A DNA stretch of 64,000 nt from Corythucha ciliata (lineage: Eukaryota > Arthropoda > Insecta > Hemiptera > Tingidae): NCBI GenBank assembly GCA_038030265.1, contig CM075937.1, positions 43,070,198-43,134,197 on the forward strand, read 5' to 3'. Below the pieces are notes generated by a model. It was given only the letters and a program-made list of their open reading frames with translations. It did no database searches and was not told the origin of the DNA. This document shows positions 3,503 to 54,800 of this stretch, piece by piece. Positions within the stretch are counted from its first letter, which is position 1. Each line of letters starts with the position of its first letter. The position numbers were made by a program, and so were the translations under genes.

Positions 3503-4552
3503 TTTTAGCTCTTGAAACCCATTATAAGCCTCACAAATCCAGGAACTGTCGAAAAAGGCTCTTTTTGGACTCATCATTTTTTCTCTGCCGGTGTATTGGT
3601 TCTATCGATCTGAAATTCTCAGGAAATCTTATTCATACTCTCGAGTAAAACTGGTAATTTTTTCAGCCGAATCCGGCGGTAACCAACCGAGATATGCAGG
3701 TTTATTCCTAGGAAGAGGTTAAAAAAAAATCTAAAAGTCTAACGAAAGTCGCTCATAACGCCGGACCCTATTCACGTGACCACAACAAATGTTCACCGAA
3801 GTTGCGCACAGGTACCAGTGTCACACCCAATTTTTTTCAGATTTTTAGAAGTGGTGGGTGTTGTATTTATTTTCGATGTAACTTGAACTTTTCTTCATTT
3901 TTACTGTGAATTAGCGAATTTTCTTAATTTCGGATTCGCACCCAGGCACTTTTTTTTTTTTTTTTTTTTTTCCTTACTTGAGTTTTAGTTACGAAGTAGT
4001 TATTTTTTTTTACACTTTATCTGTGAATTTAGCTATTCTCATCAATTTTAGCCGCTAAGTATCGCTTCAGCCCGTGCGGTGAATTAGCTATTTGTCTCTG
4101 TCAATTTATTTTGTGATTCGTTCCTGTGAATTAACAAATGTTCTCAATTTAACACCCTAAATAGGCATTTTCATTTATTTTAGCCATTTTTATTTATTTT
4201 AGCCGTGAATTAACGTTTTACCTAATTCTAGTCTCTTAGCAAGCCGTAAATGAAAGTTTGTTTTTTTAACCCTATTTTCGCTGCGAATTAACGCATTTTC
4301 CTCCTTGAGCCTTGGATTAGTGGGTTTCTTCTCTTTTTGTCACGAAGTTATCTTCAAAAGCAGAGAGTTGACGTTTTCTCCATTTTAACCGTGAATTAGC
4401 GATTTTGCCCCATTTTAGCTGGGAATTAGCCATTTTCTTCATTTTAGCCGTGAATTCGTGAATTTAGCCGCTTATATCCGTGAATTTCTTAGTTTTTTCC
4501 GCAAATTAGATATTTTCTCATTAATAGCCATGAATTAGCGCTTTTTCTCATG
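3503..4552. repeat. Lexicon repeat A (GTGAATTAGCG / TTTCTCAATTTTAGCC words)
   Basis: From about 3880 to 4550 the DNA is a chain of degenerate units of roughly 30 bp. Each has a 'CGTGAATTAGCG' word followed by a T-rich stretch and 'TCAATTTTAGCC'. Units are not exact tandem copies: spacing and words drift. A poly-T run lies at about 3951-3970. No gene seen. The same family occurs in at least eight other places in this window, in both orientations. Confidence 0.8.
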
Positions 4553-4679
4553 GCGTTTTCCATTCAATGCAATACACTAGTGTGGTGTAAGTTTTCCCAT
4601 CCGTCCTCTCTGAAGTGAAACATATGTTTATCGATAGGGCGCTGCACTACACTTGTGTATTGTGTTGAATGGAAATCGC
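4553..4679. mobile_element. Short MITE, GCGTTTTCCATTC family
   Basis: 127-bp inverted-repeat element. The left end GCGTTTTCCATTCAATGCAA pairs with a right end whose complement reads GCGATTTCCATTCAACACAA; the arms extend about 35 bp through the ACACTAGTGTGGTG word. A related copy with perfect 13-bp ends is at 42258-42395, and one-sided matches lie near 15272. No coding capacity. Target duplication not clear. Confidence 0.75.
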
Positions 4680-4943
4680 TATCTCATTGAACCACGAACC
4701 TGCTATTCTAAATAAGCCAAGAATTTATGTTTAGATACGTAATTTTAGGCGTGAATTAGGCCCGCTTTATCAATTGTTGATTTAGAAATTTAAAGAACTG
4801 ATTTAGAAAAATCATCTGTGAACCATGATGAAAAATGCAATTTATTTGAAAAAACAGTGAATTTTACAAACTAATAACAAAAATACACTAATTTATAACA
4901 AAAATTGTATGGGTTCTTCATCGAAATGCACGACCTTCAACTT

Positions 4944-6029
4944 TCACATTCCCAGCTGAGCAGCTGCTCCATCGCCAAAGCCGAGCTCTGCAGATCTCCA
5001 TTTCTTCCGTGTGCCTCTCAGACACATGCTTGACGCCCGGAGAATTGCCAGCGAGATCCTAGCCCGCATCCAACCTCTTACCGCTGACTGAGGGCGATGC
5101 CACTTATCTGCCAGCCGTTCTCCTAATACCTTGATGAAGACACTCATCTGGGGGGCGAACATTCCATCTGCGGAGCATACAAGTGGCGTGAATGTTGCAT
5201 GTCGATCTTCAGCCACACTGTTGTATTTCCTCATTTTTTCCTGCTCAGTGCTCGACAAAACTGCCGAGACAGACCGGGAGCCGTAAGAGGGGGCGTCAGT
5301 GTCTACGACACGGACGTCAAACAACGCCTCCTTCTGTGGCTCCCAGACCCCCCGGCATGCTAAATCTCCACGCAGTGCTGAAATTGAATTTGAAGCCTCT
5401 CTTATGATTGGCTCCTTCACGCAGTTGCCCCATGCTGTTGCCATCAGTTCACCCAGTACATCCCGGACCTCATTGTGGCGTCTTGTGACCAGGCCTCCTG
5501 TTCTGCAGTCTAACGCGTGTTCCAGTGTGAACTGATTATTGCCACATCCATCACACGTTTTAGGCATCTTGAATGGCTCCCTTTTGTACCTGATGGCGAT
5601 TGCGTCTTTGAACTCGTATGGTGACAGATCGAAATCATGCTTTTGTAAAGGCACGACCGAGAGCCAACCTGAAGCATTATTCTGTGTTTTGGCCTTTATC
5701 GATCTCTCAATGGCTCTCCTTCGGCCTGGGGAGAACAGTGCCAGTGTATGCTCCAATAGAGCGTCCTCCAACTCATTCCTTTTCTGTCTTGCTTCTTTCT
5801 TAGCGGCGATTGACTTTGAGAAATGTTCAGCTGCATTCAACTCCCCACCTGATCTGATGGCTCTTGTCAGTTCCATACTGCATGCCTTCGACGTTTCATA
5901 CGACAATTTGGCCATTCTGACTGGGTCACCTATCGCCAACCCTCCTTTGCAGACCGGCAACGAGAACAAGTCATTTTCTTCTGTTGAAATCGAGGTTGAT
6001 TCGCCAACAATCTTGGGAACAAATTCGGT
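4944..6029 (-). pseudogene. Restriction-like endonuclease domain of the same element
   Basis: Same frame as the RT, directly after the TAG. Numbering from the first Met (5969): a CCHC zinc motif (C139, C142, H151, C155; CDGCG...HALDC), then RHNEVRD (164-170), RGD (200-202) and FDVRVVD (217-223). This order (CCHC finger, then PD-(D/E)xK-like acidic residues) is that of R2-type restriction-like endonucleases, which nick the insertion site for target-primed reverse transcription. The C-terminus (WMRARISLAILRASSMCLRG) matches the conserved tail I recall for this family. It ends with a stop at 4944, about 185 bp from the left inverted repeat. Confidence 0.75.
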
Positions 6030-7214
6030 CTAAATACATTGGCGCAATGGTTCATAGGCCTGATCGGAGCTGTCCAAAACTCTTTGTACAAATGTCCACC
6101 GGTTCTGAAGAGACTTGGTGAAGGCTGCGTAGGCCGACTGTGGCTGAGATTCTCCGGCAGCTGCCAGTTTTCTCACTGAGCTCGTCCAACTGTCAATTTT
6201 TCGCTCGAGATAGAGTTGCTTCCCTTCCTCTGTGCCAATATACCCTCCAAGAAACCGCTGGCCTGTGACTATCTTGATTCCAGTATCTCTAAAAATCCCG
6301 TCGGCTTCGCTTTTATCATCCGTGTGTACCAGTAAGCACGACTTACTACCTTGTGGGAAGTACCCGAAGTGCGGACCCACCTCATTCAGTCTGGCCCACC
6401 AAGTTCTCAGGTTCTGTAGGCCGCCTTGCGCAGAAGAGTCGTCAGCATACCAGCATTGCTGAATTTCTGGATCCCGGAGTGTGTCGATGATTGGCAGCGT
6501 CGAAAGTCCATAGAAGAGCATGGCCAACGGATCCCCTTGGGTGACTCCCTCTCTACTGAGAATTCGCTCTTCTGTGCCACGGAACACCAATTCTGCATGT
6601 CCACGGTAGGTATTGTAGGGGAATCTTGCACAGCGTGGCCATAAGCGGCGAGCCTGCCAAAGGGCCACAATCCGGTTCATTGAGTTAAATGCATTCTTTG
6701 CGTCAACCATTAGCATCCCCCATTTAGAACCTGCCACAGACCATTCCTGAAACAAGGCATCCATTGCCTGCACTCCACCTTCAATCCCAGCACTTAGACC
6801 TCCACAGAGTTGTCTACCTCCACAGGCCTCCGTAACTTCGTCGCCAGCAACTAAGGCCACGCATTTACAGAGGATTCTTCTAAGGCAATCTCCAACACCA
6901 ATCGGTCGCACGCCTGGGCATTTATCGAGAGCCACCATTCTGCTAGCCATTAGTGCTCGAATTGAACTCCATGGGACATCTTCGGCACTAAGCCGGCACG
7001 CCAAAGCAGCCACGGTTTCCCTTAGGCGTATACTCGACCTACCGTGCCTTAATAGGAAGTCAACCCACTGCTCTGCACTTGTCCCATTTGGTCCACCTCC
7101 GCCATGGAGCTTTCTCGCTACTTTCTGCACCAGGTCAGCCGTAATCAGTGGGGGTAGTAACGGAGGTAATTCCTGTCCCTCGGGGAACTCCATTAGACTA
7201 GATTCGGGAATCAA
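6030..7214 (-). pseudogene. Reverse transcriptase domain of the RLE-type element
   Basis: A 394-residue open segment with ordered RT boxes: VRPIGVGDCLRRILCK (about 103-118), DAKNAFNSMN (171-180, the DxxxxF box A), EGVTQGDPLAM (222-232) and WYADDSS (255-261, catalytic YADD), followed by a thumb region ending in SAYAAFTKSLQNRWTFV. This RT type, with its downstream HALDC/RHNEVRD nuclease, resembles proteins abundant in many invertebrates and placed with R2/NeSL/Utopia-type elements. I am recalling the family, not searching. The frame ends at an in-frame TAG (6030-6032), after which the same frame continues into the endonuclease piece. The element therefore carries one frameshift and one nonsense change but is otherwise well preserved, so it died recently. 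Confidence 0.8.
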
Positions 7215-7969
7215 GGGTTCTGGATGTGTTTTTTTTTTAGTTCTTGCATGACTGTTATTCCTTCAGAATCCACTACTGAGTCAGGTTGCAACACAGAGGT
7301 TGTGCCGCTTTCCTCTAACCACTGAACAGCTTCCCGCACTTTCCCTCGTAGCATAAAGTGGTGAAATGTTTTTACTGTCTGATTTTCATTTGGGGTGCCG
7401 CGTTGCTTTCGAATACCTAGTTTCTTGTCTGCATTCAGTGCGTCGGCAATTAGTATGTCAAATTCACCATTTAACCAGAGCTGAGTTCTTCGGGTCAAGA
7501 GAACTCTAATGTCCTTAACTTGCTTCACCATTTTGTCCCTCTGGAGCATTACAGCCAAATAAACAAAGACCCTTTCTGATGGAGCATCATCCGCCCTCAG
7601 CTTTTCAACCTCCTGTGCTAACAAGTCCACAAAACCTGATGATCCTCCCGGTAAGTCATACTTTCTGCCCTGCAACTGAATTACTTTCTTCCATCTTCTA
7701 TCCCAGTTAACATCAGCTCTTTCACCGGGTCCATGAACAAATTGTGACCCATATATACTGGCCAGTTTTTCCTTCCATTCAGTCGTCTGCTCTTCTTGAG
7801 AGTCCTGACTGCCGACAGCCTGATGGTCCTGACTTTCCACTACTGTACGGCAAATCGAGGACCATCTCAGGTGACCGTTCAAGCTTATGAAGTCTCTGCC
7901 ACACCCTCGACATACCACACGGCGAGGCGTTTGATTGAAGATGTCACTTATAGATTCGTCATGAGACAT
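7211..7969 (-). pseudogene. N-terminal part of RLE-type non-LTR reverse transcriptase (zinc-finger region)
   Basis: A 252-residue frame starting at ATG 7969. An N-terminal CCHC-type finger (C20, C23, H33, C40 in CRGCGRDFISLNGHLRWSSI) resembles the nucleic-acid-binding fingers at the start of R2-like proteins. The rest is charged and linker-like. The frame ends a few residues after a run of ten A's (minus strand, about 7229-7238). Adding one A would put it in frame with the reverse-transcriptase piece beginning at 7214. This could be a simple indel or, less likely, a programmed slip. Confidence 0.65.
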
Positions 7970-8269
7970 TATAACATCCTCCGGTTACACTGACGACACC
8001 CCGGTGACCATATTTAACACAACTTTTTGCAAATTCAACAGCAGAATAATTGCCTGCGCCGAAATTCAACCGAAACGCGGTCCGGGACCACTCCCAAATG
8101 TGTTTCCACACCAAATCACTTCCTTTTCAACTCTTTTTACCACTTATTTTCAACTTTTTTGGCAGAGCGATTTTCTTCCTTTGAATGAAATATTGATGAA
8201 ATATTTGAACATGAAACAGATGACTTTTTTAGTCAGCTCTTTAACCAACGATTGATAAAGCGGGCCTTA

Positions 8270-8682
8270 GCCCTTTTTCGCAGAACCATTGGTTAATTAT
8301 TGATTTTTCACTCCGCTATCCTTTAGCATGTTTCGTAAATTTAACCACGAGTTATACTGCTTATTTTTACACTTTATCCGCGATTTTAGTGCTTTTTCTC
8401 AATTTTAGCCGTGGAAGTAACGTTTTACCCCGCGAATTAGCTGTGTATTGTTCTTCATTTTAGCCGCGATTAGGAATTTTCTCGCTTCTGCACGTGAATC
8501 GGAGATTTTTCTCAATAATTTAAGCCGTGAATTAACCATTTATCTTAATTTCAGCCCAAAATTAGCGTTTTTTCAATTTTGGTCCGGATTAAGTTGGCTC
8601 GAATATTACCACTTTCCAAACTTTTATCCGCTTACTTGCCCCAAAAATATCACATAATTGCGCCTTCTCAATTTTGGCCGCC
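8270..8682. repeat. Lexicon repeat A, target of the gypsy insertion
   Basis: Degenerate 30-bp units with ATTTTAGCCGTG / GAATTAGCG words. The gypsy LTR begins at 8683 directly within one such unit (...CAATTTTGGCCGCC). Confidence 0.75.
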
Positions 8683-9856: not shown

Positions 9857-12800
9857 TTACTTATTTATTTTTTTTGTGGGGGAGAGAGTTTTGCGTACAT
9901 AGTACGGCTTTATTTGCGAGGCATGGACATTGCGATATTTTGAGCTGTTTGCGAGATCGTCTAGAGGTGCTACTCGAAATGATGTTCTATTTAGAATTTC
10001 TATAATTTTGTGAGGCGCTGAATATTTCAGACTTAATTTGGACGTAATTTGTTTCTTTGCGTTGCTTAAAATGTGGTGTTTAATTAGGACGTTATCGTGA
10101 AGTTGAAATTTGAATGGGCCGGCTTTCTTGTCATATTGTTTTCGGTTATTTAGATTTGCCCTTTGCAGCTTTTTGACTGCTATTTTTAAGATTTCGGGAT
10201 TTATTTTGGGATGAAGTTGGTGTAATTGCCAAATTAAGGATAAGGGGGTATTAATTGCTTGGTTTAGGAATAATTCGCCGGGTGTGTGGGCAGTGCTTTC
10301 GTGCTTGGCAGTGTTGATGGCTAGCATCACGTGGTGGAGGTGGTCGGACCAATTAGTTTGAGAATCGTGGTGGTAGGCTGTCAAAATTTGTTTGATTGTT
10401 TTAATGACTCGCTCACTCTGATTGGGGTGGGGACGATAAGGAATTAGGCAAACGTGATTCACTCCGTTTGTGAAAAGGAAATTTTTGAATTTAGAATTGT
10501 TGAAGGTGCGGGCGTTGTCAGTAACTAAGTTGACGGGATAGCCGAAATACGCTATAAAACGAGTTTTTAGTGCCGTGATGACTGCGTCCGTAGTCGCTTC
10601 TTTGAGCGGGACGGCGGTTGTGAATTTGGAGAATCCGTCTATGATTATTAGCATATATTTATTGTCGTTGGAAGGTGGTAAAGGGCCTGTAATATCTATG
10701 AAGACTCGTTGCATGGGGAATGTTTGAATGGCGGAAGCGAGGGGGGGTATGGTAGATGTGTTCTTTTGCTTAGAACGTTGACACACGTCGCATGTTTTAA
10801 CATATTGTTTCGCCTCGTGGAACATGTTTGGCCAATAGAAATATTGTTGTATACGGGCGAAGGTCTTATTAATACCCAAGTGACCCGACGTGTAACCGTC
10901 GTGGAAATATCTTAGAATTAGGGGTTTTATTTGATGAGGAACGACTAATTTGGGTGGTGAATTCCTATTTGGGGTAAACATTAGTTTGTTTTGATTGAGG
11001 AAGTAGGGTCCATTATAACTATTTTGTTTTATGTTATTGATGATATCGAGTAACTGGGGGTCTTCCAGTTGATGGGAGGTGAGATCTTTGTACGACAAGG
11101 GGAAGGCAGTCAAATTATTTAATGAATGTGGAGTTGGAGGGGGTTGGGCGATGATAGTAGCCATTTCGTAAGATTTGTCGAGGTCTTCATCTGACGCGAT
11201 TTCATAAGGGTAACGGGAAAGTAGATCTGCTAAACTGTTCTGCGCGCCTGGGATGTGTTTCGACGTAAATGAATATGAATTTATGTGAAGCATGGTTCTC
11301 AAAATTCGGGGATTTTTAGGGGCATGGTGGGACATGTAGGACAAGGCTTGGTTATCAACCATTAGAGTGAAGTGGCGGCCTTTCAAGTATAACTTGAACT
11401 TTTCAAGAGCAAATGCCACGGCCAAGAGTTCTCGGTCGTAAATAGCATATGCACGTTGTCGATCGGTGAGTTTGCGACTTGCAAAATGGATGGGGAGTAA
11501 TGTTCCGTTGCTTTCGTTTGCGAGTACGGCTCCTATTCCGGAGTCACTCGCGTCGGTTAAGACGACGAATGGGAGAGAGAAATCGGGAAGATGAAGGGCG
11601 GGGGGTTTTGAAATACTTCTTAGTAGTGTGTCCCATGCCGCTTGGCATTGAGGAGTCCAGTTGAATGGGCGGTTCTTCTTACGAAGTTCGTTTAAGGGAG
11701 CGATTATCTGGGCCATGTTAGGGATGAATTTTTGAAAGAAATTAAATGCGCCTAAAACTTGGGCTATATTTTTGGACGTACGGGGGCGAGGTAGGGAAAG
11801 AAGAGCATTGATTCTATCTTCGGATAATTTATACTGACCATTGGAAATTACATGCCCTAAGTAGGTGACTGATTCTTGAACGAATTGAACTTTTTTGGGG
11901 TTTGCAGTAAGCCCTGCTTGTCGAAGACGTGAGAAGATTTCGTGGAGCGTATCAATGTGTTGATTTTTTGTTTTTGAAAATACAATTATGTCATCTAAAA
12001 AGGTGAAGATTTCTTTGTATTTTAAATCGTGGAATACCTGGTCTATTAGGTGGGATAAAAGCGCGGCTCCGGAGGAAATACCCATGGGGAGTTTGTTGAA
12101 ACGATATATTCCGAAGGGGGTGGTGAAACTAGTCAAATTTTTACTCGCTTCGTCAAGCGGTATCTGATGGTATGCTTTGGCCAGATCGATAATGGAAAAG
12201 TATCGCGCGTCTTTAAGGTAGCAAAAGGCCTGCTCTATTGTGGGCAATTGATACGAGACGGTTTCAATTTGCTTATTCAAGTGTGTGTAATTAACTACAA
12301 GACGATAGCTTGACGGGATGTTGGGGGCGTGGCGTTTTTTGACGAGAAAGGCGGGAGACGAATAGGGTGATAGGGTCTTCTCTATTACTTTTGCGTCTTC
12401 TAATTCGCGTATTAGGGAGCGTAAAATTTCGAGTTTATCGGGGGCTAAATGATATACTTTTTGTTTTTGGCGGAAATCAGCGTTCTGTTTTACTTCGATC
12501 TTATAAGTCAAGAGGTGGGTGGTCCCTAACTCTTTGGTCAAGACGTCAGGATAGTGGGTATGAAAATAGGAGGCAAATTCTTCTGGAGTATTTAAATGGT
12601 TTAAGTGGAGGTCTTCGAGGGTGTGAGTCGAGGGGGGGTTTTTCCCTACAGAAAATTTGTATTTATTTAGGGGCCTGTTTTTGAAGTAAAACTCGTTGCT
12701 GGAAGGGTCTATTACGATGGAGAATTTCTTTAAGAAATCTAGTCCCAGAATGATGTCTCTGGACAGTTGAGGCAAGAGAAACAAGCGATATTTGAATTTC

Positions 12801-13104
12801 AAGTTGTGAATGAAGAATACTATTTTTGCCGATTTATTAACCATTATTTTATTTTTATTTGGGAGAACAACGGGGAAGTGGTTTTTAACGGATTGGGGCC
12901 TTCTAGTAAATAAGGACTTGAAAAGAGCTTCATTCATGAAGGAAACAGATGAACCTGTGTCGAGAATTCCCTGGGCAAGGTGAGGTTTTGGGGCGTTTAT
13001 GTATAATTCGATTTGATTTGTTGGTGGATGGGGGGTAGGCTGATTAGTGATCATGGATGGATGGTTGGGGGCGGGAGCCTTTGGAGGATCGCCCCCATGG
13101 CTTA
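9857..13104 (-). CDS. pol: pol of the young gypsy element (protease-RT-RNase H-integrase)
   Basis: Read in the -1 frame relative to gag; this frame is open from the gag stop. The first internal ATG is at 13054, giving 1065 residues from there. Domains in order: aspartic protease (ILDTGSSVSF, about residue 30); reverse transcriptase (VVNYTHLNKQIE, IDLAKAYHQIP, FTFLDDIIVFSK with catalytic LDD); RNase H (LTDASDSGIGAVLAN, YDRELLAVAFALEKF); integrase with the HHCC finger (GHLGINKTF...TCDVC) and catalytic residues in FIDITGPLP, VTDNARTF and NQSERVIKTI. The C-terminal tail (IKPYYVRKT) is short; I see no chromodomain. All key motifs are intact, consistent with the near-identical LTRs. Synthesis presumably depends on frameshifting. 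Confidence 0.95.
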
Positions 13105-13111
13105 GTTTTTT
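13067..13111 (-). promoter_or_regulatory. -1 ribosomal frameshift signal between gag and pol
   Basis: On the minus strand the gag frame reads TCA AAA AAC TAA: the canonical slippery heptamer A AAA AAC (13105-13111) in the correct phase, immediately followed by the gag stop. Slipping by -1 continues CTA AGC CAT..., which is the pol frame. After an 8-nt spacer (13097-13104) comes a perfect 7-bp stem, GGGGGCG (13090-13096) with CGCCCCC (13067-13073), with a 16-nt loop. Heptamer, phase, spacer length and GC-rich stem all match known -1 signals. The stem is seen; its in vivo activity is inferred. Confidence 0.88.
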
Positions 13112-14796
13112 GATTTAGTTTTATGCGGTTGCGCTCGAGATGGGAATACCCTGATCTTGGGGTCCGTTGGCGATGAGTTATTACGGGTAGACGAAGACTT
13201 GTGTTCGTCTCCGGGAGTGGGGTTTTTGAATTTATACTCTGGACTGAATTTGAAGTTCGAGTTTCCTTGTTTGAAGGAAGAATCTCGCGGGGTATATCGT
13301 GAGTTACTAGAGTACCCATTAGTAGAACAATTGGGAGAATTTGGACGAGATGTAGTTGGGGAGAGCGGGGTGTAGGTGCCGTCTTTATTGAGGCGGAAGA
13401 TTGGGGGTGGGGTACTTCTTTGAATATGGTGAAGTGAGGACGAGTTGGGATAGTCGCCTCTTTTCGTCTCCCGGTGGGTTGGCGACGTACGGTAGCGGTC
13501 ACTTCTGTTGGGTGGGGGCAGAGCTTCACGCTCGCGATAATAATTCGGGCGAGAAATATTTGCGCTATTTTGCGGATGACGATACGTAAAATTTGGTGGA
13601 GGGGATGGCCGTTGATAAATGTTGGAGGGTCGGGAATAGTGTTTATGGGGGGAATAATTTAATTCTTTTTGCTCGACTTGAGCCACGAATCTTTCCAGTT
13701 CCTCGTAATTTGAGGGGGGCTTTAACGTATAGAAATAATTGCGACTTGCGTGTGCCGCATTATTCAGGGCGATTCCTATTATTTCCTCTTCGGTGTGGGA
13801 CTTTAAAATTTCGTTCGTCCGTTTCAAATGATCTGTAAATTCACGAAAGGATTCTGAGCTGAACTGGGGGCGAAATAAATAGTTGCGTTGGAGGTCGGAC
13901 ATTCCATGGATATTTATAAGTTCATGAAAAATTTTGTTTCTGAGCGTCTCGAAGTCCGAGACTTGTTCCTGGAAAACCAGCCGTTGCAAATATTCATTTT
14001 TTTGTTCTATTGATAAATGGAGCAGGACCTGGTTGAAATTATTTCCTGATATATTGGATATACGTTTTGTTTTTAGTAAAAATTTCATGATGGAGTGAAG
14101 ATTATTGGTTTTTAATTGAGGGACTTGGTCAATTGCATTTAGAATATATTTTGGGAGCTTTTGTTGATAATCGTTGTTATTAAAATGGGAAAAATTGGTG
14201 GGGTGTTTAAACGTAACTTTACCGGTCTGGGGGTCAGTTGTTAATTCGGCATTATTATTTGTATAAATGTTACTAGCGGAGGGGGAGTCTTCAGAGACGG
14301 TGGCATTCTGTTCGGGTTGGGTGGTGGGAGGATTAATATCTGGTAGTTTCTTATGAGTAGATGGGGGCTGTTGGAGGGGGTTCGCGGTTGATTCGTCGTG
14401 GACAAGGTGAAGGGAGGACTGAGTCATCATTTTGATGAGTTGGTCTAACTTTTTATCTATTTGAACCTGGGACTCTTCTAATTTTTTTATTACTGGACTT
14501 TTTTCCAACTCTTTATGGAACCATTCGTTTAGATCGTTTGGGAATGTTCTTTGTTTATCAAGAACCGATCGTACAGCGGATTTAAGGGCTTCGATTTGGG
14601 GATTTATGCTGCAACAATTGTTAACAAAAGATTCTTTTCGTTCTTGATTTAACTTTTTAAAATTTATGAGCGTTATTTTGCTACAATTTTCGCACCTTTG
14701 TGATTGACATTGTGAACAAACAATTGGGGGATCTGAGGATTGTCTTTTGCACGAAGAGCACTTGAAATTTGTGGACGGTTGGGAGGTGGACGACAT
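13102..14796 (-). CDS. gag: gag of the young gypsy element, with an N-terminal zinc finger
   Basis: 564-residue structural polyprotein. Unusually, the cysteine-rich module is at the N-terminus (C13, C16, C27, C30, C35, C38; a RING/PHD/B-box-like arrangement). No C-terminal CCHC zinc knuckle is evident; the C-terminal third is instead proline- and arginine-rich (for example RPSPPPNFTYRHPQNSANIS) and probably binds RNA by charge. The middle region (about 190-380), with LKTNNLHSIMKFLLKTKR and FRPQFSSESFREFTDHLKRT, fits a retrotransposon capsid. The reading frame ends KTKSKN-stop exactly at the slippery heptamer of the -1 frameshift signal. The start ATG at 14796 lies about 80 bp inside the 5' LTR. 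Confidence 0.85.
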   Translation of the reverse strand: MSSTSQPSTNFKCSSCKRQSSDPPIVCSQCQSQRCENCSKITLINFKKLNQERKESFVNNCCSINPQIEALKSAVRSVLDKQRTFPNDLNEWFHKELEKSPVIKKLEESQVQIDKKLDQLIKMMTQSSLHLVHDESTANPLQQPPSTHKKLPDINPPTTQPEQNATVSEDSPSASNIYTNNNAELTTDPQTGKVTFKHPTNFSHFNNNDYQQKLPKYILNAIDQVPQLKTNNLHSIMKFLLKTKRISNISGNNFNQVLLHLSIEQKNEYLQRLVFQEQVSDFETLRNKIFHELINIHGMSDLQRNYLFRPQFSSESFREFTDHLKRTNEILKSHTEEEIIGIALNNAAHASRNYFYTLKPPSNYEELERFVAQVEQKELNYSPHKHYSRPSNIYQRPSPPPNFTYRHPQNSANISRPNYYREREALPPPNRSDRYRTSPTHRETKRGDYPNSSSLHHIQRSTPPPIFRLNKDGTYTPLSPTTSRPNSPNCSTNGYSSNSRYTPRDSSFKQGNSNFKFSPEYKFKNPTPGDEHKSSSTRNNSSPTDPKIRVFPSRAQPHKTKSKN

Positions 14797-14860
14797 TTTT
14801 ACGAATTACTGGATGAAGGGTGAAGGGCTTTTAAAATAACCGAAAAATAATGGGTTCAAA

Positions 14861-31639: not shown

Positions 31640-34600
31640 TCACACAATGAACGCTGGAAGTCTCCATGACACGAGACGTTTTCGACTATTATACCTCTCT
31701 ATCGTCACAAAACTTTTCTCAGGATGCTTCAGCCTCTTCTTTCTGTTTCCTTCTTCCAGCAAATCGTCGAATCCCAGCGAGAGAGTAACATTCAGCTCAT
31801 GAAAGCCTTTTTGGATTCAACTTCTCAATCTCAGGGTGCGCTTACCTACACGTCTTGTGGACGCGTCTCGTCGCTCGAAATTGGAAATCGCTAAGTTCGA
31901 CGGTAAAAAGCAGGATCCATCCACCTGGATGAATGTCTACGAAAAATCCTGTGAGGCAAATCACTGGTGTACAGACGAGCAGAAGATATTCAATCTGGTT
32001 ACCCATTTCGATTCGGGTAGCATGGCTGAAAAATGGTTCAATTCCTCACTAGAAAGACATCATGACTACGATTGGCGTGAATGGAAGGAGTCCTTCGTGA
32101 AGGCTTTTGGTCAGAACCCTTTGGAACTGGCTATAATAAAAGCGAATCAGTGGCACTACACAGGAAGGACATATCATGGAGTTTTTCTACGAAAAGCAGA
32201 GGCTGCTTTCTCTAGCTTACGGTGAACTTCCAGATCGGGCATTCATACTTTTAGTCATGCTTGGCCTGCCCCAAACGTTTCAAACTCATCTTTCTCATCA
32301 GGAATTCAATTCAAGAGAGGATTTTCGTCACGCTTTAGAAAAACTTAAGCCGTTAGAGCCTATGGCTTCTTTTAAGGGAGACAAGCAAGAGATGCAAAAG
32401 AAGATTCCATACAAAAATAATTTTTGTGTTGAAGAAGAACCAAAGGAAAAAATTCGGATTTTTTTTCATCATATTTTGTGGCCTACTTAGTTCATTCCCC
32501 TCTCACCCAAAAGTTTCTAGTAAATAATATTCCAATGGAGGTATTGCTGGATACGGGCGCCACTGTCAACATCGTGAGGTCCAAGATAGTTATACGGAAT
32601 AAATGTCCGTGTATGAAAGAAAGTAAAATTTTAAAAGGGTTTAATGGGTCCACTGAGCGGATAAGCACTTCTGTTTCAATTAAAATCGTATCAAATGGCA
32701 TTGAAGTGGAAGAAAAGGCCTATGTGATGGATGACCTGTCTTATGACTTAATCATTGGGCACCCCACGCTAGCCAAACTGGGATACCAATTGGTGCATCA
32801 ACGGGCGACAAGTAACACCAATTTTAACCTGGTTGATAAAAGCCCCATACCTTCCATATCAACCCCCAAGGATAAAAGCAAGGCTCCAAAAATTCTTTCA
32901 ACATCTGATATTCCTTCATTCTTTCCATCACTAATCAATCAAACGAAAACGCCTATTTCAAAATTGACTTTTCTCTAAAAAGCAATGCTCCTATCGTAAA
33001 ACAAAAACCCTATCGTCTGACGAGGCAGAAGTACTCGTGGGCTCAACAAAGGTACAAGAATAGTTAGAAAAGAGAATCATTAGGCCCTCAACTTCCGAGT
33101 ACGCTTCTCAATGCGTAATTGTGCCCAAGGAAAATGACAGTTGGCGTTTATGCCAGGATTATCGGGAAATCAATAAGCATACCGAATTAGATCCTTTTCC
33201 TATTATAGACGACATTATTTGCAATTTCGGTGGTTGTCACTATTTTTCAAAACTTGATTTCAAAGACGGTTTCTTGCAACTCCAGTTATTCGATCATACT
33301 AAAAAATTCACTGCTTTTGTACTTCCATTCGGCCATTTTGAGTTCAACCGGCTTCCCTTCGGCTGGAAGAATTCCCCATCGAAATTTCACTCATGTTCTA
33401 CCACTCGTACACCTTCTCGAAGCCTGAAAACAATTATTCAGTTACTGACAAGGCGAGGCTCTAGCTGTTATAAAAGCCCTAAAATACTTTCGAAGCTATT
33501 ATCGAAAATAGGCCATGCACAATTCATACCGATCACCAGGCTTTAAGCTACCTTTTGACCCTAAAGGAGCCAAAAGGTCGTCATGCAAGGTGGCAAGTAT
33601 TTCTAATGGGTTATGAGTTAAAAATTAACCACAAAAAGGGTAGCGACCTCGAGGATGCTGCGACGCCCTATCTCGGCTCTGTGTTGGCCGTTTAGAAGCA
33701 AATATTACTGAATCAACTACTCAACGAATTCACGGCAGAATTCAAATAAAACCAGAATTGATTCCAGCTGTCCTTCGGAGCTACCACGATGACCCAGAAT
33801 CAGGTGGACATGACGGTTTCCTCAGGACATACCTAGAACTGAGGCAAAGGTTTTACTGGCCAAAAATGAAAGATGACAAATCCAAGTAGGTACGTGAAAA
33901 CATGCTCTGACTGCCAGTTTATGAAGTTTAAATTCAAGCCGAAGCCAGAAGTAATGGTTGTGGCTGAACAGCCTTTTTCTACAATTTCGCGGAATTGAGC
34001 AAGGGAAGTGAAGGCCAAAAAGTATCGAGGTCATTCTTGGTGATAGTGGATGAGTTTTCCAAATACACATTCGCCAAGGCAATGAAAGCCGAGCTCACGA
34101 GCAGTCATTGGCTATTTAAAAAATTTCCCACACATTGAAAAGGTGAAGAAAGTAGTCAGCGACAACGGTCCTCAATTTACGTCTTCTGCAATGTCTACCT
34201 TTCTTAAAAAGAATGACATACAACTGGTCACTTCTTCCCCTTATCACCCGGCGGGAAATGGACTTGCAGAAAGGAAAATTAGAGACTTGAAGCAGTACGT
34301 TTCTTTTTATCCTAACATGAAAGGAGGATGGAAGGTGTGCTTAGAATCTGCTGTGAAACACATGAACAGGTCTCATTCGGCGGCTATTGGGTGTTCACCT
34401 CACTACAAAGCATTTGGAAAGACAAACTTATTTCCAGTGGACCTAAAATTTGGAGTCAGCGACGAAATGATGAACGAGAGTCCCTTTACAAAAGAAGAGC
34501 AACAACGCTAATATTCTAGGATGAAGAAGAACTTTGATTCTAGGCATCCTAAAACCATCCCGAGAATAGTTGGAAGCGAGATTCTGGTTCAATGCGGGTA

Positions 34601-52969: not shown

Positions 52970-54800
52970 TTAAAACCAATTTTGATTCGGCTCGTTTGTA
53001 TCACTCCTCGCCCCATTATTATGACCCGTAAAACTCCCCACCGTTAAGCGGTCCACACCGGTAACGTGCCAGCCTTGAGCAATCTGGTACGGCTGACGGT
53101 GAGTGGGGTGGGGATAACCGTGAATTGCACTTCCCGGACGTCCTGACAGGTTGTTCATTCCTTTGAGTAGCTTGTCTTTACGTTGCCGGAATGCGACTGT
53201 GAGCGGTTTGTGGTCAGTGTATATTGTAAAAGTATGAGCTTCAAGGATGTGCCGAAAGTGCTGAATAGTTGAATATACAGCGTGTAGTTCTCGGTAGAAT
53301 GCTGGCCATTCCGATTGACGAGGCGTAAGCTTTTGTGAGAAAAAAGCAAGTGGTTGCCAACTGTCACCGATCTTTTGCTGGAGAGAAGCGCCAATAGCGA
53401 CTTGTGAAGAGTCAGTGAAAAGACCCTGTTCGGTGTCTGCCTGAGAGTGAGCGAGGAGAGTCGCGGTCGAGAGTTGTTCTTTGCAGGCGATGAAGGCCTG
53501 GTCAAATTCTGGAGTCCACGTGAGTTGTTGTTTTCCGTGAATTCCAGCTAAAGCATCGTGTAATGGGGCCTGGAATTTGGCCGCGGAGGGGAGAAACGTC
53601 GATAAAAATTTATCATGCCGAGGAATAGACGAAGTCTTTGGGCGGAAGTAGGTCGACTAAAACTCTGAATAGCGGTGACACGATCGGTGGGAGGTTTGAT
53701 GCCAAGACTTGAGACCTCGTAGCCCAGAAAAATAACTGAGGGCAATCCGAGAGAGCATTTTTTAGCGTTAACCAGAATACCGTGATGAGAAAGACATGGG
53801 AAGACAGTACGAAGACGGGAACGATGTTCGTCGGTGTTGCGGGAGAAAATAAGAATACCATCAATGTAGGGGTAACAAAAATCAAGGCCTTGGAGAACTT
53901 CGTCGATGAAACGTTGGAAGATCTGGCCGGCGTTACGAAGACTGAAGGACATGAAAGGAAATTCAAAAAGACAGCAGGGCGTCGTGATGGCCGTTTGGGA
54001 ATGTAATCAGGATTTACAGGAATTTGGTGGTAAGCTTTGACGAGATCGATGGTGGAAAAGATGGTGCATCCGGCTAGACGATGTGTGAAATCGTGAATGT
54101 GACGAACGGGGTAACGATCGGGAATTGTTCTAGCGTTTAGTGCGCGGTAATCTCGCAAGGGCGCCAACTGCCAGTTTCGGGACCATGTGCAGGGGTGAAG
54201 ACCAGGGTCCATCAGAGCGACGTGCGATCCCAGTTTGAAGCATTGCGTCAAATTCGGCCTTGGCGATACGAAGGCGGTCAGGGGCTAGGCGACGAGGGTG
54301 AAAAGAGATCGGGGGACCTGGCGTCGTATTGATGAAATGGACTGTCGAGTGCTGGACGATGCTTGGGGAGACACGTGGCCTTGTGAGTTCGGGAAAGTCT
54401 TACAGGATTGATGGAAGAGTCGACGAGGTGCAGGTGGATAACACTTGAAACTTGGTTGAGAGTTCCCGGTTGAAGTACAAGGCGGTGAGAGACCCGTGAC
54501 GGAATCAATAAGTCTAGTATTGCGACAATCAGGAAGAAGGGAGAAATGAGAGAGGAAATCAGAGCCAATGAGAAGAATTTGCACGTCGGCTATTACAAAC
54601 GTCCACGTGAGGTCCCGGCGGAGGCCAAAATCGAGTTTTAGACGAATATGTGTGTCTGTCGGAATTGTTGGCAACGGTCAAGTCATAGTCGAGACGGCGG
54701 CGATATTCAGGTACGAAGCGACGGGGAAGGCAACACAAGTCGGAACCGGTGTCAATTAAAAAATCTTCGTTTTGTGCTTCGGTCAACGATGAACAAGCGG
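52970..54800 (-). pseudogene. Decayed Ty3/gypsy element (protease, RT, RNase H)
   Basis: Minus strand. Protease FLIDTGSDLCCLPRRF (about 54760). RT: LRDYRALNARTIPDRYPVRH (about 54150), FSTIDLVKAYHQIPV (about 54050), CYPYIDGILIFSR (53880, catalytic YIDG instead of Y-D-D, so probably inactive), VIFLGYEVSSLGIKPPTDRV. RNase H: LFTDSSQVAIGASLQ (about 53410), ELHAVYSTIQHFRHILEAHT, IYTDHKPLTVAF. The style resembles CsRn1/Kabuki-type gypsy elements, from memory. At least two frameshifts; gag and integrase were not found; no LTRs seen. Confidence 0.8.

What the first reader, a model, noticed from the sequence alone, without database searches (positions are those of the whole stretch)
4756..8269. Reverse-transcriptase/endonuclease gene enclosed by Harbinger-like inverted repeats with TTA target duplication
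Seen: inverted ends beginning GGCCCGCTTTATCAAT, similar over 55-65 bp, with TTA abutting each. The only coding content between them is an RT plus a restriction-like endonuclease (YADD, CCHC, RHNEVRD). Known: RLE non-LTR elements move by target-primed reverse transcription and have no TIRs, while TTA/TAA duplications and GGCC-like TIRs mark PIF/Harbinger. Inference: either a clean nested insertion, or an RT gene mobilised in trans as cargo of a TIR transposon. No internal target duplication or 5' truncation was found. The coding region starts about 300 bp from one TIR and ends about 185 bp from the other, which favours a unit.
Basis: partly seen in the sequence, partly recalled or inferred. Interest (0 to 1): 0.8.

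Follow-up and report, generated by a model that had tools for sequence, protein, structure and literature searches.

The report
Retrotransposon nested inside a MITE
A copy-and-paste mobile element landed in the middle of a tiny cut-and-paste mobile element, so the two only look like one unit; a few later copies appear to have carried off a scrap of the tiny element at their ends.

Summary
The inverted ends, the flanking TTA and the RT/endonuclease gene are there, but they are two elements, not one. The ends belong to a 140-bp MITE (TIR GGCCCGCTTTATCAAT, TWA flanks) that exists elsewhere uninterrupted. The RT belongs to a roughly 3.34-kb R2-like non-LTR element with many other copies; none of those scored carries the TIR. 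The element (4837-8176, minus strand) sits in the centre of the MITE and duplicated 11 bp of it (8194-8204, 4826-4836; one base differs); intact MITEs carry that stretch once. TSD-like matches flank 11 of 21 copies (8% of control pairings). A further point: three other copies, two with TSDs of their own, carry 12-18 nt of this MITE beyond the element's usual 3' end, including a variant found in exact form only at this MITE. With a fourth copy they form a star-like clade with the window copy. The simplest reading is that this insertion was the source of a small sub-lineage with 3'-transduced MITE tags. The window copy now has an in-frame stop and a frame change. New member of a known kind, with a modest twist.

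The parts
4756..4758 (.). TTA target duplication of the MITE, left
   Evidence: Sequence; TWA on both sides of 9 of 10 intact MITEs, identical on both sides in 6 of 10
4759..4836 (+). Left part of the interrupted MITE (TIR GGCCCGCTTTATCAAT...), including its copy of the 11-bp duplication
   Evidence: 39 other genomic places match up to query position 78 or 81 and stop there; intact 140-bp copies
4826..4836 (.). 11-bp target duplication TGATGAAAAAT, 3' side of the RT element; differs from the other copy at one base
   Evidence: In intact MITEs the left and right halves of the window overlap here by 8-11 bases, 11 in 7 of 11 loci read
4837..8176 (-). R2-like non-LTR retrotransposon copy, 3340 bp, lacking the 27 nt with which most copies begin
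   Evidence: Copies elsewhere match the window between these points only
4944..7969 (-). Broken coding region (first ATG of its frame at 7969): N-terminal Cys/His finger, RT with YADD, CCHC, C-terminal endonuclease-like domain; in-frame TAG at 6030-6032 and a frame change at about 7229-7238
   Evidence: ORFs; homologues P0002-P0005, 996-1010 aa at 54-59% identity; alignment A1
8177..8193 (.). 17 extra nt between target duplication and 5' end of the RT element, matched to neither element
   Evidence: RT matches end at query 207, MITE matches begin at query 225; 0-24 nt lie there in the 11 copies with a TSD-like match
8194..8204 (.). 11-bp target duplication TGATGAAATAT, 5' side of the RT element
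8194..8266 (+). Right part of the interrupted MITE up to the TIR end GCGGGCC
   Evidence: 10 other places match this part and not the RT
8267..8269 (.). TTA target duplication of the MITE, right

Best explanation
A non-autonomous TIR element (a 140-bp MITE, probably moved by a PIF/Harbinger-type transposase that duplicates TWA) was already at this locus. An R2-like, not site-specific non-LTR retrotransposon then inserted into its centre by target-primed reverse transcription: its endonuclease nicked the MITE, the RNA was copied from its 3' end, copying stopped 27 nt short of the usual 5' end, and joining left an 11-bp target duplication and 17 extra nt. Shown: the two elements are separate families, the target stretch is duplicated, uninterrupted MITEs exist. 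Inferred: the priming mechanism and the transposase. Further inferred, with less certainty (about 0.7): this copy was then a source, since three other copies carry 12-18 nt of this MITE beyond the usual 3' end, as read-through transcripts of this locus would.
For: RT without TIR: no non-window row (41 rows, 40 scored of 495 candidates) reaches left of window 4819; 24 of 29 other RT places stop matching exactly at window 8176. MITE without RT: 39 other places, 10; 10 of 11 other loci read are whole, 140-142 bp. The window's two halves overlap by 8-11 bases in intact MITEs, so the window holds a duplication. TSDs: 9 of 21 copies score 12 or more against 2.9% of 420 mismatched flank pairings; 11 of 21 score 10 or more against 8.3%. 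An intact homologue at 59% identity has an R2-like predicted fold. Source role: a 26-nt pattern across element end and MITE is found at 4 places, 3 exact (one the window), 1 with two mismatches at its end, reversed control 0; GTGAACCATGATGAAAAAT occurs in exact form only at the window; two tagged copies have TSDs seen by eye, 14 and 12 bp; of 43 sites where the window departs from 21 other copies, 19 are shared by every covered daughter, none by some only, and no derived base is shared by two or more daughters but not the window.
Against: The window's duplicates differ at 1 of 11 bases, and on flanks alone their match (8.5) is no better than chance (8 or more in 33% of control pairings); the case rests on the empty MITEs. 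10 of 21 copies, the window among them, score under 10, and some high scores are AT-rich simple repeats. L003 shows no TSD where looked at. For the source role: 24 sites are private to the window and it is broken now, so a sister copy could have been the source; 7 of the 19 shared sites are also in L006, which has no tag, 3 more are in one or two other untagged copies, and 7 are covered by L039 alone; L039's 6-nt tag may be chance.
Confidence: 0.97

Rival explanations
1. The RT gene is cargo of a TIR transposon and the 3.5-kb unit moves as one by a transposase acting in trans.
For: TIRs and TTA lie at both ends with only the RT between.
Against: No other scored place has both; the MITE reads straight through at intact loci; an 11-bp MITE duplication flanks the RT; about half of the RT copies read have TSD-like flanks of their own.
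Confidence: 0.01
2. The MITE-like 3' tail was already part of the RT sub-lineage, and its RNA annealed to the matching MITE here: homology guided the insertion, and the tag does not come from this locus.
For: The tagged copies carry the variant base of the left duplicate, not the usual MITE base, as a junction copied from RNA would.
Against: It needs a chance or earlier origin of a 16-18 nt MITE match. The window would then have lost about 5-7 bp of target instead of gaining an 11-bp duplication, unlike L002 and L004. The tags differ in length (18, 16, 12, perhaps 6 nt), as variable read-through would give.
Confidence: 0.12
3. Assembly artefact joining unrelated sequences.
For: None found; reads were not available.
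Against: Both junctions fit one insertion with a target duplication, in a 56-Mb contig.
Confidence: 0.01

Closest known systems
R2 retrotransposons (fold and domain order)
   Same: Cys/His finger at the N-terminus, RT, CCHC, C-terminal endonuclease-like domain; first solved-structure matches by sequence and by Foldseek
   Different: Copies read do not share a target: flanks differ, except L048 and L054, which lie in what looks like the same repeat. Identity to R2 is 14-16% in the structural alignments
BLAG, non-site-specific R2-like elements of Blattella germanica (PMC7650587: passages and sections 17 and 18 read)
   Same: 3.2-3.7 kb, about 1000 aa, not site-specific, 5'-truncated copies; the paper explains sub-families with shared 5' flanks by transcription from the host locus, a parallel to the 3' tags here
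   Different: The BLAG bipartite motif is not found in the window's N-terminal piece
PIF/Harbinger MITEs (family marks recalled)
   Same: TIR beginning GGCC, TWA flanks; DDE_Tnp_4 transposase genes are plentiful in this genome
   Different: No transposase was tied to these TIRs; the two flanking triplets differ in 4 of 10 copies
3' transduction by human L1 (recalled; one search gave a listing only)
   Same: Daughter copies carry downstream flank of the source locus followed by their own TSD
   Different: Only 6-18 nt here; no poly(A) signal was looked for

Membership tests
RLE non-LTR retrotransposon, R2-like group | RT domain with YxDD and R2/LINE-type fold | tested here: met
   YADD; RVT_1 in 13 of 14 aligned members at E<=1, best 2.8e-9, though the window's own piece is below the curated cut-off (E 0.0098, 0.029); R2 first in Foldseek with a homologue's model, 2.3e-19
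RLE non-LTR retrotransposon, R2-like group | CCHC and C-terminal restriction-like endonuclease | tested here: inconclusive
   CDGC-H-C, then RHNEVRD, EP, GDL, FDVRV in the C-terminal part, mostly conserved. R2 alignments reach model residue 989-1007; six of seven L1 rows stop by 797, one reaches 988. The domain was not folded alone and catalysis cannot be tested
RLE non-LTR retrotransposon, R2-like group | TPRT marks: shared 3' region, variable 5' truncation, target duplications | tested here: met
   14 of 20 other copies share the first nucleotide, 6 start 2-32 nt in; L002 and L004 are shorter at the 5' end; TSD-like matches in 11 of 21 copies, none clear in 10
R2 proper | Insertion in 28S rDNA | tested here: not met
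   Flanks differ between copies; the window copy sits in a MITE. Flanks were not searched against rRNA one by one, except L041, L053 and the window, no Rfam match
BLAG | Bipartite BLAG motif between finger and RT | tested here: not met
   Window N-terminal piece scores 27 against a shuffle mean of 26.7; in 2 of 69 proteins (first 400 residues) 2 or fewer of 200 shuffles reach the score
TIR transposon carrying an RT | Same RT between the same TIRs at other loci | tested here: not met
   No scored place other than the window
PIF/Harbinger MITE | TIR plus 3-bp TWA duplication | tested here: met
   TWA on both sides in 9 of 10 intact copies, identical on both sides in 6 of 10
PIF/Harbinger MITE | Shared TIR with a DDE_Tnp_4 autonomous element | not tested
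   150 transposase matches listed, 150 scored of 1301 candidates; the TIR pattern search to link them did not complete

The most novel reading that the evidence does not exclude
This nested copy founded a sub-lineage of an R2-like element whose 3' end includes a scrap of a DNA transposon: a retrotransposon lengthened its 3' terminus by reading into a MITE, and the longer end still worked for insertion, since two tagged daughters have their own target duplications.
Probability: 0.7. Interest if true: 0.4.

Novelty: new member of a known kind. Interest (0 to 1): 0.25.

Why it matters
As a unit it would have broken the line between the two classes of transposons; it is not one. What remains is a clear worked example of how a nested insertion mimics a hybrid element, and a small set of copies whose 3' tags point to one source locus. 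That gives a handle on how R2-like elements outside rDNA are transcribed and how tolerant their 3' ends are.

Tried and rejected
RT as TIR cargo: rejected for the places scored. Known structured RNA such as an R2-type ribozyme: no Rfam match at gathering thresholds in L041, L053 and the window. BLAG membership: rejected. Preference of the RT family for this MITE: no MITE match at E<=1e-4 in loci L002-L004, L006, L007 and L010-L058; short tags cannot reach that threshold. Host identity: a Ku-domain ORF found no homologue at E<=0.001; the window also has an EcKL/DUF1679 kinase piece, so I take it for an animal, species not determined. Strand-biased G-to-A change in the RT copies: weak for singletons (150 at 959 sites against 80 at 691 sites, 26 copies, P 0.03), not pursued. 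Literature: (non-LTR, restriction-like endonuclease and terminal inverted repeats together) found no paper; some searches gave listings in whose titles and abstract starts I saw none that describes this element. PMC7650587 alone was opened (passages, sections 17 and 18).

Full report
What is there.

The two elements come apart. A search with window 4700-5100 scored 40 of 495 candidates and gave 41 rows. Apart from the window itself none begins left of query position 120 (window 4819), so none holds the TIR that starts at 4759; 35 of 40 begin at query 120-152 and 5 at 163-197. A search with window 7970-8272 (40 scored of 362, 44 rows) gave 29 other RT places, 24 of which stop matching exactly at query 207 (window 8176) and 5 at 113-204, and 10 other places that match only within query 225-303, the MITE half. 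A search with 4756-4850 (40 scored of 318) gave 39 other MITE places, all ending at query 78 or 81. No scored place but the window has both. The searches are capped, so counts are lower bounds and an unscored exception is possible.

The empty site. Eleven other MITE loci were read: ten are whole, 140 bp in nine and 142 in one, and L070 lacks its right arm. In them the window's left and right halves overlap by 11 bases (7 of 11), 9 (3) or 8 (1) around TGATGAAATAT or a variant of it, present once. The window has this stretch twice, 8194-8204 TGATGAAATAT and 4826-4836 TGATGAAAAAT: an 11-bp target duplication with one difference, with 17 further nt (8177-8193) next to the RT's 5' end. The flanking triplets of the MITE are TWA on both sides in 9 of 10 copies but identical in only 6 of 10.

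The tags. The window's 3' junction, in RT sense, is element ...TTGC followed by ATTTTTCATCATGGTTCACAG of the MITE. L003 carries 18 nt of this after the element's usual end, L002 16, L004 12, and L039 6, which may be chance. A 26-nt pattern over the junction occurs at four places, three exact (the window, L003's and L002's loci) and L004's with two mismatches at its end; reversed control none. ATTTTT instead of the ATATTT of the intact MITEs read is shared by them, and GTGAACCATGATGAAAAAT occurs in exact form only at the window. By eye, L002 has a 14-bp duplication AATCATTCGGGACT after the tag and L004 a 12-bp one, CTGGCAATTAAC; for L003 none was seen. In two trees these copies and the window group together (support 0.89 and 0.95), with untagged L006 as sister. 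At 43 sites where the window differs from the majority of 21 other copies and a daughter is covered, 19 are shared by every covered daughter, none by some only, and 24 are private to the window. No derived base is shared by two or more daughters but not the window. Of the 19, 7 are also in L006, 3 in one or two other untagged copies, and 7 rest on L039 alone. This fits the window insertion as the source before its private changes; it does not prove it.

How it works, marked. Shown: nested order, target duplication, independent families. Inferred from established knowledge of LINEs (recalled): target-primed reverse transcription. Inferred here: transcription of the source ran a few bases into the MITE. 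Not tested: the transposase of the MITE (one search lists 150 DDE_Tnp_4 matches; the linking search did not complete).

Noticed in passing
window 9857-14805, minus strand: Ty3/gypsy-type element with a 1085-aa open pol (protease, RT, RNase H, integrase domains) and a 567-aa ORF beside it that I take for gag.
   Followed up: no
window 3889-4545 and 8394-8572: 14 copies of a degenerate 33-nt repeat (CATTTTAGCCGTGAATTAGCG-like) lie on both sides of the MITE, so the MITE seems to sit within a repeat array.
   Followed up: no
window 4550-4682: Another possible MITE-like inverted repeat, arms of 38 nt at 84% with 57 nt between, just left of the finding.
   Followed up: no
intact MITEs L061, L063, L065, L066: The flanking triplets of the MITE differ between the two sides in 4 of 10 copies, more than expected for a simple 3-bp duplication.
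   Followed up: partly
26 RT copies aligned (window, L002-L004, L006, L007, L039-L058): On the RT sense strand G-to-A changes exceed C-to-T in pooled counts (given there in window orientation), but singletons show only a weak excess.
   Followed up: partly
window 32433-33546 and 52970-54284: Fragments of further retroelements: protease and RT domains in the first, an RT match below the curated cut-off in the second.
   Followed up: no
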